From Gimesia benthica (GTDB lineage: Bacteria > Planctomycetota > Planctomycetia > Planctomycetales > Planctomycetaceae): DNA of 64,000 nt. A program made the translations under genes and the position numbers. The stretch is taken from the NCBI RefSeq assembly GCF_009720525.1, contig NZ_CP043930.1:2701501-2765500 (forward strand). The letters run 5' to 3'. Position 1 is the stretch's first letter, and the number at the start of each line of letters is the position of its first letter. The notes beneath the pieces were generated by a model that searched no databases, was not told the DNA's origin, and saw nothing but the letters and a program-made list of their open reading frames with translations. Shown one piece after another: positions 13,755-15,451 of this stretch.

Positions 13755-14528
13755 CTATCTGCGGGGCATGCTTTGTATCAGACGGCCCAGGGAGTCATCC
13801 TGCAGTTTGATCATGTTGATGTTAGACTCGAACATCCGGGTAGATGTCACCAGTTCCATCATCTCCTCGATGGAGTTGGTGCCGGACGCTTCCAGAAACC
13901 CCTGTTCGATCGTGACCGGCCCTTTGGCCTCGGAAACACGACCTTCAGTGGTGTAGAGGCTGTTTCCCATTTTGACGAGTTCGTTAAGCGACGATGGCAT
14001 CACGATCGCAATCTGTCCCCGGGTTCCCAGCGCCTGTCCTTGGGCGTCAAAGGGAGTCACTAGACCATCGGGAGAAATTTCCATGCGAACGGCATCGACG
14101 GGCAGTGTAATTTCCTGGCCGTTGGTATTCAGCAGAGGCAGCCCCTGATCGGCAGTCACAACGCGGCGCTTACTGTCCAGAGAAAGGGACCCGTTGCGAG
14201 TCAGATAGGAGTTTTGAGAATTGCCGACCTGGAAGAAACCCTGCCCTTTTAAGGCCAGGTCAAAATCGCTTTCGGTCGAGATCATGGCCCCGTTTTCGAA
14301 ATTGGTCGTCATCACTTCCAGAGTGATACCACCACTGTGGTTTTGCAGATCTCCGGGAAGAGGCGCCAGGGGAGCCTGTTTCTCGTCGGCAGGCGGGTTC
14401 ATGCGAAAAATGGGTATATCACGCTTGAATGAAGTCGTATTCGCATTCGCCATATTGTTAGCCAGCACATCCATTCGCACTGAATTTGCATCAGCGCCTT
14501 GTGCTGAGAGGTACATGCCGTAAATCAT
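13755..14528 (-). CDS. flgF: Flagellar proximal rod protein FlgF-like
   Basis: This second rod protein has the N-terminal motif VRMDVLANNMANANTTSFK and a C-terminal segment FLEASGTNSIEEMMELVTST, closely related to FlgG but shorter in its variable parts. Its place directly before flgG and its 257 residues fit FlgF. It is the first gene of the nine-gene flagellar run. Its start codon is preceded by a leader that can trap the ribosome binding site in a 12-bp stem (14529-14641), so its translation is probably regulated. Confidence 0.9.
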   Translation of the reverse strand: MIYGMYLSAQGADANSVRMDVLANNMANANTTSFKRDIPIFRMNPPADEKQAPLAPLPGDLQNHSGGITLEVMTTNFENGAMISTESDFDLALKGQGFFQVGNSQNSYLTRNGSLSLDSKRRVVTADQGLPLLNTNGQEITLPVDAVRMEISPDGLVTPFDAQGQALGTRGQIAIVMPSSLNELVKMGNSLYTTEGRVSEAKGPVTIEQGFLEASGTNSIEEMMELVTSTRMFESNINMIKLQDDSLGRLIQSMPRR

Positions 14529-14641
14529 TTAGATACCTGTTATGAACCGCCGCCATCTGAATAAATAGACAGTAACGATGTCAACGAGTTTCGATAGACA
14601 CTTCCCCCCGTCTATCTATCGGAACTCGCTAACAGGTATCT
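14529..14641 (-). promoter_or_regulatory. Structured flgF leader with sequestered RBS
   Basis: Positions 14531-14542 and 14630-14641 are perfect 12-bp inverted repeats. The proximal arm contains the AGG ribosome binding site and ends 2 bases before the flgF ATG. Between the arms, 14585-14599 and 14610-14628 form a second stem (6 bp, one mismatch, 7 bp, plus wobble pairs). Its loop in RNA is GGGGGGAAGU, which contains GGA, the core of CsrA binding sites. csrA is the next gene upstream. The pairing is seen directly. Control by CsrA or by another switch is inferred. Confidence 0.6.
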
Positions 14642-14976
14642 TTAATATAATCGGAAAAAAGAGTTTATTTCTCCTATTTTCACATCTGCAAGTAATTCGG
14701 ACTCGCGTATGTGCCGGCATGCCCTAATCAATGTCTGGCCGATGAATGTCTGGGCACTAGAACCGTCTCTAAAAGATGATCAGTTGGCTGCTGTCAAACC
14801 AAGGCATATAGAGAACATGGAGAACAAAAAAGATACTGCTCCCACGAGAGAAATATAATAGCATCGGTCCGTTGTAAACTGACCTGGAAGGTCCAGAATT
14901 CTCCGCCAGATCAATTAACAACCATAGTGGCTCTTCAGCAACCAGCGCCTGATCAATCAGCGATCATTGCGATCAA
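14642..14976. other. Intergenic region between csrA and the flgF leader
   Basis: No gene is seen. It holds the probable flgF promoter region (minus strand: TTGCAG at about 14691-14686 and TAAACT 18 bases later, weak), a near-perfect short direct repeat AATGTCTGG at about 14730 and 14745, and four GATC sites within 14950-14980. None of these is strong enough for a separate call. Confidence 0.4.
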
Positions 14977-15177
14977 TTATAAACCACAGCTCTGCAGGGG
15001 TTCACATTCGACTTCAAACTGGGTGACCAGCTTACGAATTTCAGCGCGATTCACCTGAACATCATCAGGTGCTTCAACCCCCAGACGTACTCGATTCCCC
15101 TTTACTGACAGCACTTTGATCGAGATATTGTCGTTAATCACAATCTCTTCATCCTTGCGTCTTGTGAGCACTAACAT
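14977..15177 (-). CDS. csrA: Carbon storage regulator CsrA
   Basis: CsrA is a homodimeric RNA-binding protein that blocks or stabilises mRNAs at GGA motifs and often governs flagellar genes. The 66-residue protein starts [18 protein letters not shown] and continues with [26 protein letters not shown], covering all five strands and the helix of the fold. The RNA-contacting residues (L4, R6 and the segment around [12 protein letters not shown]) are present. The ATG at 15175-15177 has an AAGGAG site 7 bases upstream, so the longer in-frame extension is rejected. The tail is short and acidic. It sits just upstream of the flagellar operon, on the same strand. Confidence 0.97.
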
Positions 15178-15273
15178 AGTGGACTCCTTTCTTAAGTTCA
15201 TTCCTTTGATAAATCTAACCAAGCCCTACTCAGTAGAGTGAAAGAGTTACATCCATCTCTAGAGATTATACGC

Positions 15274-15408: not shown

Positions 15409-15451
15409 GCAAAATGCTTCACTATTTTGGCACAAAAGTGAAGCATTTTGC
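15409..15451. repeat. 15-bp perfect dyad upstream of csrA
   Basis: The arms 15409-15423 and 15437-15451 (GCAAAATGCTTCACT and its complement) are perfect inverted repeats. The 13-base centre can add four more pairs. There is no T-tract on either side, so it is not a standard terminator. It lies between the divergent csrA and the secreted-protein gene and could be an operator or an RNA hairpin. Confidence 0.7.

What the first reader, a model, noticed from the sequence alone, without database searches (positions are those of the whole stretch)
14529..14641. flgF leader can hide its ribosome binding site and shows a GGA-loop hairpin next to csrA
A perfect 12-bp inverted repeat (14531-14542, 14630-14641) places the AGG of the flgF ribosome binding site, 7 bases before ATG, in a stem. 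Inside lies a second stem of about 15 pairs whose 10-base loop reads GGGGGGAAGU. CsrA binds GGA in hairpin loops, and csrA is the next gene upstream on the same strand. A CsrA-switched leader controlling entry to the nine-gene flagellar operon would be a new arrangement in planctomycetes.
Basis: partly seen in the sequence, partly recalled or inferred. Interest (0 to 1): 0.75.

Follow-up and report, generated by a model that had tools for sequence, protein, structure and literature searches.

The report
Flagellar promoter doubling as ribosome-site blocker
Upstream of a flagellar operon in a planctomycete, the promoter DNA appears also to encode the RNA strand that hides the gene's ribosome-binding site, so messages started at that promoter could be translated while run-on messages from the gene before would be silenced.

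Summary
The repeats are real and not chance: a perfect 12-bp inverted repeat in a leader folding at z -5.0. A core of it is kept in all 15 genus genomes where flgF was found (17 searched). P1, hiding the AGG, forms in all 15 minimum-energy folds. The CsrA switch is not supported. The 5' strands of P1 and P2 coincide with a flagellar sigma-28-type promoter, TAAAGATA-n13-TCCGATAG. Its motif lies upstream of flgF in 29 of 34 regions from other genera (1.26 in shuffles); a related one precedes flagellin (13 of 13 usable genomes); FliA is encoded. The G-run of the 'loop' sits at the predicted transcript start, and G-runs recur near there in 7 of 21 other genera. RNA started there would lack both 5' strands. 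Best explanation: the promoter doubles as the anti-RBS strand, so run-on RNA, e.g. from csrA, is blocked while promoter-started RNA is freed, as in phage T4 gene e. Transcript start, read-through and silencing are inferred; no expression data exist, and predicted AUG exposure does not rise.

The parts
14649..14658 (-). TTTTCCGATT upstream box; shared with flgF upstream regions of other genera (consensus TTTNNCGRTT)
   Evidence: in G015 and G012 the CC is changed
14637..14644 (-). predicted sigma-28-type -35 element TAAAGATA, overlapping the 5' strand of P1
   Evidence: TAAAGAT in 15 of 15 leaders, TAAAGATA in 12 of 15; same octamer as the -35 of the E. coli aer sigma-28 promoter (passage); family motif in 29 of 34
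14630..14641 (-). 5' strand of P1, AGATACCTGTTA (shared core GATACCTG)
14616..14623 (-). predicted sigma-28-type -10 element TCCGATAG, also the 5' strand of P2
   Evidence: 15 of 15 leaders; TTCCGATA upstream of flagellin in 13 of 13 usable genomes
14604..14609 (-). G-run GGGGGG, at the predicted transcript start (6 nt after the -10 octamer); apical loop of P2 in a run-on RNA
   Evidence: begins 8 or 9 nt after CGAT in 15 of 15; start distance taken from E. coli aer
14590..14600 (-). 3' strand of P2, TGTCTATCGAA
   Evidence: mean column identity 0.97 over 15 leaders; pair table
14547..14580 (-). P3, a variable hairpin with some both-sided changes, present in run-on and promoter-started RNA
   Evidence: 3 of its 8 listed pairs have changes on both sides
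14531..14542 (-). 3' strand of P1, TAACAGGTATCT, holding the AGG (14536-14538); core CAGGTATC invariant
   Evidence: identity 1.00 over 15 leaders
13755..14528 (-). flgF, first gene of a flagellar run down to 4474: flgF, flgG-like, flgA, flgH, flgI, flgJ-like, a 175-aa frame without NCBIfam match, flgK, flgL
   Evidence: TIGR02490 flgF model matched below its cut-off
14977..15177 (-). csrA (from the ATG at 15177), with a TATAAT at 15265-15270 upstream; possible source of run-on RNA

Best explanation
The element is the promoter and translation-start region of the flgF flagellar operon in Gimesia, and one stretch of DNA does two jobs. As DNA, 14658-14616 is a flagellar sigma-28 (FliA)-type promoter with a 13-bp spacer, starting transcription near the G-run at about 14609. 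As RNA, which exists only when polymerase runs in from upstream (for example from csrA), the -35 element pairs with the RBS (P1) and the -10 element pairs with the early leader (P2), hiding the AGG. RNA started at the promoter lacks both 5' strands, keeps P3, and has a freer AGG. So flgF should be translated from its own FliA-dependent message and hardly from run-on RNA, the logic of the phage T4 gene e leader. Shown: the conserved complementarity, the promoter motif shared across the family, and the predicted difference in AGG exposure. Inferred: the transcript start, FliA dependence, run-on transcription and silencing.
For: Promoter: TNAA[GC]-N15-18-NCGAT within 260 nt upstream of flgF in 29 of 34 regions from other genera, against a mean of 1.26 (maximum 5) in 100 shuffles and 1 on the other strand. 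Upstream of flagellin, T(A/G)CC-N10-TTCCGATA with the same spacing as in the window's flgF is kept in 13 of 13 usable genomes. FliA is present at 261.7 bits, cut-off 189.6. TAAAGATA equals the -35 of the E. coli aer sigma-28 promoter, whose transcript starts 6 bp after its -10 octamer (passages of PMC2859248), the place where the G-run begins. Structure: P1 forms in 15 of 15 minimum-energy folds (correct-strand rows, 25); its 3' strand is invariant over 8 positions and its two interior variable pairs keep pairing through G-U. Exposure: the AGG is unpaired with mean probability 0.00-0.31 in run-on RNA (below 0.2 in 14 of 15) and 0.18-0.86 in promoter-started RNA, higher in 15 of 15; total pairing of the start region (-18 to +3) falls in 11 of 11 representatives. 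The promoter block pairs with the start region more than its shuffles (3 or fewer of 60 as high) in 10 of 11 Gimesia representatives. In other genera a weak tendency: by genus, n = 21, p = 0.018; far-upstream block p = 0.80; against other genera's promoter blocks p = 0.019. Precedent: T4 gene e (passages of PMC3014915).
Against: No transcript data. The spacer is 13 bp, not the 11 of the E. coli consensus. No both-sided compensatory change in P1 or P2. Predicted exposure of the AUG itself is lower in promoter-started RNA in 11 of 15, equal in 1, higher in 3, and in 5 of 6 such RNAs folded (without the G-run) the AGG pairs with UACCU inside flgF. AGG exposure differs little in G008 (0.31 to 0.38) and G002 (0.17 to 0.23). 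G012 shows no excess pairing of promoter block and start region (13 of 60 shuffles as high). In other genera only 3 of 29 genomes are individually in the top 3 of 60; these tests are post hoc and the rows are related. Read-through from csrA is unproven; one terminator-like site lies between, no more than in shuffles. The extended motif is not a regulon mark in this genome: 11 of 13 hits overlap an open frame.
Confidence: 0.48

Rival explanations
1. It is only a sigma-28-type promoter plus a conserved 5' leader. The complementarity reflects DNA-level sites (for example dyad sites around the start) or leader functions unrelated to hiding the RBS; P1 and P2 never form as RNA to any effect.
For: The promoter explains conservation of both 5' strands and, with the start, of the G-run. 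In most other genera the pairing with the start region is weak or absent (3 of 29 individually strong; mean z -0.61). The AUG is not predicted to be freer in promoter-started RNA.
Against: It does not explain why CAGGTATC is invariant while its neighbours are at 0.64-0.75 identity, or why the interior P1 changes keep G-U pairing. The arms lie 117-123 nt apart with single-nucleotide variation, unlike helix-phased operators.
Confidence: 0.3
2. A full-length cis-regulatory RNA transcribed from a start upstream of 14641, switched by a ligand, temperature or protein that opens P1.
For: P1 with P2- and P3-type stems inside in 15 of 15 leaders, z from -7.8 to -1.0 (correct-strand rows, 25); one copy per genome, always at flgF, in 15 of 17 genus genomes. 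Some conservation continues just upstream (0.61-0.69 identity in 14693-14664).
Against: No Rfam match. No match in the other 153 of 170 family genomes (stricter filters, 20 candidates scored per genome). The 5' half of the supposed aptamer is a motif shared with relatives that lack the fold.
Confidence: 0.12
3. One reading: CsrA binds the GGA of the P2 loop and switches the leader.
For: A GGA ends the G-run in 15 of 15 leaders. csrA is upstream in 15 of 15. The csrA leader carries two AAAGGA-type sites kept in 15 of 15, so CsrA control near this locus is plausible.
Against: No second GGA is shared by the leaders; in relatives the G-run is followed by C or T in 6 of 10. The run lies at the predicted start. 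13 CsrA-family matches weaken the neighbour argument. Promoter-started RNA has no such hairpin loop.
Confidence: 0.08

Closest known systems
Bacteriophage T4 gene e (lysozyme) leader, and T4 soc, 49 and I-TevI
   Same: Long upstream-started RNA hides the RBS; RNA from a proximal promoter lacks the 5' strand and is translated; in related phages the promoter region encodes the 5' strand (passages of PMC3014915).
   Different: Here a bacterial chromosomal flagellar operon, a three-way junction rather than one stem-loop, with predicted -35 and -10 elements both serving as 5' strands; no experiment yet.
Flagellar sigma-28 (FliA) promoters, e.g. E. coli aer
   Same: -35 TAAAGATA identical to aer; -10 TCCGATAG close to the consensus GCCGATAA; G-run begins where the start would be (passages of PMC2859248).
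   Different: Spacer 13 bp instead of 11; an added TTTNNCGRTT box upstream; a G-tract at the start.
CsrA-repressed leaders of flagellar genes (e.g. Bacillus hag; recalled)
   Same: GGA in a hairpin loop upstream of a flagellar gene, csrA nearby.
   Different: No second shared GGA, RBS without GGA, no FliW match, loop explained by the predicted transcript start.

Membership tests
sigma-28 (FliA) promoter | TAAAGTTT-like -35 and GCCGATAA-like -10 octamers | tested here: met
   TAAAGATA and TCCGATAG in the window; TAAAGAT and TCCGATAG in 15 of 15 leaders
sigma-28 (FliA) promoter | 11-bp spacer between the octamers (E. coli consensus) | tested here: not met
   13 bp in the window; in the 29 family hits 22 have 17 and 7 have 16 nt between TNAA[GC] and NCGAT, i.e. 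13 or 12 bp between octamers. Hence called sigma-28-type, not filed as a member
sigma-28 (FliA) promoter | Cognate sigma factor present and needed for transcription | tested here: inconclusive
   FliA family member over the cut-off; dependence not testable here
T4 gene e-type promoter-gated RBS sequestration | 5' strand of the RBS-blocking stem is encoded within the proximal promoter | tested here: inconclusive
   Overlap of P1 and P2 5' strands with the predicted -35 and -10 is exact, but the promoter itself is a prediction
T4 gene e-type promoter-gated RBS sequestration | Long transcripts exist and are poorly translated; short ones are translated | not testable with these tools
   only predicted exposure: AGG higher in promoter-started RNA in 15 of 15, AUG higher in 3 of 15
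CsrA-regulated leader | GGA sites in hairpin loops, usually more than one, one often at the RBS (recalled) | tested here: not met
   one GGA site shared by the 15 leaders; RBS core CAGGUAUC has no GGA
CsrA-regulated leader | CsrA binds the RNA | not testable with these tools
   needs a gel shift
Known riboswitch or RNA family | Match to an Rfam 15 covariance model | tested here: not met
   no match at gathering score in the window nor at E up to 5 for 14400-15000

The most novel reading that the evidence does not exclude
A bacterial flagellar promoter is built so that its -35 and -10 elements are also the antisense strands that lock the operon's ribosome site in any RNA not started there, making translation itself FliA-dependent, in a weaker form across the Planctomycetaceae. 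The transcripts begin with a conserved G-tract at or just after the start, which could allow slippage or nucleotide-sensing initiation.
Probability: 0.38. Interest if true: 0.72.

Novelty: new variant of a known kind. Interest (0 to 1): 0.55.

Why it matters
If true, a flagellar checkpoint is written into overlapping DNA and RNA codes: the rod and hook operon could not be translated from leaky upstream transcription, only once FliA is active. It would carry the T4 gene e logic into a bacterial chromosome and show how promoter and anti-RBS sequence can be made to coincide. It also gives a testable promoter model for planctomycete flagellar genes and an unexplained G-tract at their predicted start sites.

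Tried and rejected
CsrA switch: rejected as main explanation. Known riboswitch: no Rfam match. Mobile repeat: one full copy in the genome, and one model match per genome, at flgF. Upstream open reading frame starting in the G-run: looked at by eye in the alignment, frame interrupted in some and open in others; no computation; dropped. Pseudoknot of the G-run with the upstream UUUUCC: dropped because that box changes in G004, G003, G015 and G012. Intrinsic terminator between csrA and flgF: one site, shuffles 0.9 on average.

Errors and dropped rows: searches took loci in contig orientation, so 8 of 15 rows and 7 of 14 folds were the wrong strand; they were discarded and redone. Of the 37 non-genus genomes with flgF, regions of 34 were fetched; G044, G070 and G091 were left out. 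In some searches the 5 regions without the motif (G149, G086, G115, G020, G019) were dropped; the match in G072 may be chance. One search used 9 and one search used 11 of the 15 Gimesia leaders. In some searches G012 (contig end) was not counted: 13 of 14 flagellin loci. The offset range 8-17 was chosen.

Full report
What is there. The perfect 12-bp inverted repeat is at the stated place, with the AGG 7 bases before the flgF ATG in its 3' strand. The minus-strand RNA folds at -47.3 kcal/mol against -29.4 (sd 3.6) for shuffles, 0 of 200 as good. The fold is a three-way junction: P1 (outer arms), P2 (hairpin with the G-run in its loop) and P3. The window lies in an 8.03-Mb single-contig genome. 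The genus is inferred to be Gimesia: a same-genus genome (G015, contig of 5999 bases) corresponds to a record titled uncultured Gimesia sp..

Conservation. flgF was found in 15 of 17 genus genomes, and csrA lies upstream in all 15. On 11 representatives, identity in the intergenic region between csrA and the block ranges from 0.06 to 0.70 per 15-nt bin; from about 14663 to the ATG it is 0.65-0.94, about that of csrA itself. P1 forms in the minimum-energy fold of all 15 leaders, with a P2-type and a P3-type stem inside; details differ in G013, G015 and G012. Fold z-scores run from -7.8 to -1.0, and 5 of 15 (G013, G004, G003, G015, G012) are weaker than -2 (correct-strand rows, 25). In the named structure 93.6% of cells pair, against 24-40% when partners are slid. 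Cells with both-sided changes (14 against 6.3 in shuffles, 0 of 500) and the covariation score (0.165 against 0.120, 0 of 500) exceed shuffles. The number of pairs with both-sided change (3 against 2.8) and of pair types (17 against 16.6) do not. All both-sided changes are in P3. P1 varies at three pairs: two interior ones to G-U and, at its inner end, an A-C mismatch in G012. Model R1 finds one match per genome in 15 of 17 genus genomes and none in the other 153 of the 170 family genomes (stricter filters).

The turn. To see whether relatives keep the structure, I fetched flgF upstream regions of 34 genomes of other genera. They do not match the RNA model, but they share the DNA of its 5' half. 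Aligned on CGAT, the 29 regions with the motif read TTTNNCGgTTNNgcTNAAgNTtNCGg-N9-gtCGAT. TNAA[GC]-N15-18-NCGAT occurs in 29 of 34, against 1.26 on average in shuffles (maximum 5) and 1 on the opposite strand. In the window this is TTTTCCGATTA..TAAAGATA-n13-TCCGATAG. The octamers match the flagellar sigma-28 consensus TAAAGTTT-n11-GCCGATAA; TAAAGATA is the -35 of the E. coli aer promoter, whose transcript starts 6 bp after the -10 octamer (passages of PMC2859248). The spacer is two longer. The genome encodes a FliA (261.7 bits, cut-off 189.6). Upstream of flagellin, T(A/G)CC-N10-TTCCGATA, with the spacing of the window's flgF, is kept in 13 of 13 usable genomes, about 290 nt before the ATG. 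A looser pattern also matches 384 nt upstream of fliA, with a 90-aa frame between; with that pattern such matches are not rare, so this is weak. A genome search for the extended motif gave 13 hits (1 for the reversed control pattern); 11 overlap an open frame of 80 aa or more and 2 do not, flgF and L192, so the extended form is not a regulon mark here.

Consequence. The start predicted from the promoter is at the G-run, 14609-14604. RNA made there lacks the 5' strands of P1 and P2. The predicted chance that the AGG is unpaired is 0.00-0.31 in run-on RNA (below 0.2 in 14 of 15) and 0.18-0.86 in promoter-started RNA, higher in 15 of 15, though by little in G008 and G002. Against the reading, the AUG is less exposed in promoter-started RNA in 11 of 15 (equal in 1, more in 3), and in 5 of 6 such RNAs folded the AGG region pairs with UACCU in the coding region. 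Total pairing of the start region, -18 to +3, falls in 11 of 11 representatives. So the strong blocker exists only in RNA entering from upstream. This is the arrangement described for T4 gene e, where longer early transcripts form the inhibitory structure and transcripts from late promoters just upstream lack its 5' portion (passages of PMC3014915).

Is the pairing selected, or an accident of promoter conservation? In Gimesia the P1 3' strand CAGGTATC is invariant in 15 of 15 while its flanks are at 0.75 and 0.64. The promoter block pairs with the start region more than its shuffles (3 or fewer of 60 as high) in 10 of 11 representatives; G012 is the exception (13 of 60). In other genera the effect is weak: duplex z averages -0.61 (SE 0.22) over 29, against -3.29 over 9 Gimesia leaders; 3 of 29 are individually in the top 3 of 60, and over genomes native exceeds shuffled with p = 0.001. 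By genus (n = 21) p = 0.018; far-upstream blocks p = 0.80; native against other genera's promoter blocks p = 0.019. Rows are related and the tests were designed after the idea.

The G-run. In the 29 regions of other genera, runs of five or more G occur downstream of the motif in 10; 9 of these begin 10-15 nt after CGAT, that is 7 of 21 genera, against 17 of 3184 windows of equal size further upstream (0.5%). No other 10-nt bin from -150 to +59 holds more than one genus. In Gimesia the run begins 8 nt (12 of 15) or 9 nt (3 of 15) after CGAT. It is followed by A in 4, C in 5 and T in 1 of the 10. This ties it to the promoter start rather than to CsrA. Slippage, pausing or a 5'-end signal remain open.

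CsrA. There are 13 CsrA-family matches over the cut-off and no FliW match in the genome. GGA ends the G-run in 15 of 15 leaders, but no second GGA is shared. CsrA control of csrA itself looks likelier: two AAAGGA-type sites in its leader are kept in 15 of 15.

Literature. Searches on planctomycete CsrA and flagella, planctomycete transcription starts, FliA in planctomycetes (12 of 530 listed), Gimesia flagella (15 of 25 listed) and RBS sequestration in longer or run-on transcripts listed nothing that describes this arrangement in title or start of abstract; those papers were not read. Passages of PMC7716864 report flagella in all its Gimesia strains.

Noticed in passing
flgF upstream regions of other genera among L149-L182; window 14604-14609: A tract of five or more G begins 10-15 nt after the CGAT of the flgF promoter motif in 7 of 21 other genera, against a base rate of 0.5%; function unknown.
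   Followed up: partly
window 15183-15208 (minus strand): The csrA leader holds CAAAGGAATG and AAGAAAGGAGT, kept in 15 of 15 Gimesia genomes, resembling CsrA binding sites (consensus recalled) and suggesting autoregulation.
   Followed up: no
L205 1282-1330 (flagellin leader, 219-171 nt before the ATG): A 49-nt block with two GGA motifs is identical in 13 of 13 usable genomes, far from the start codon: a candidate regulatory RNA or CsrA target.
   Followed up: no
whole genome G000: 13 CsrA-family matches over the curated cut-off and no FliW match.
   Followed up: no
window 15409-15451: A 21-nt inverted repeat (90% complementary, 1 nt between the arms) upstream of csrA, possibly a terminator or a regulator site.
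   Followed up: no
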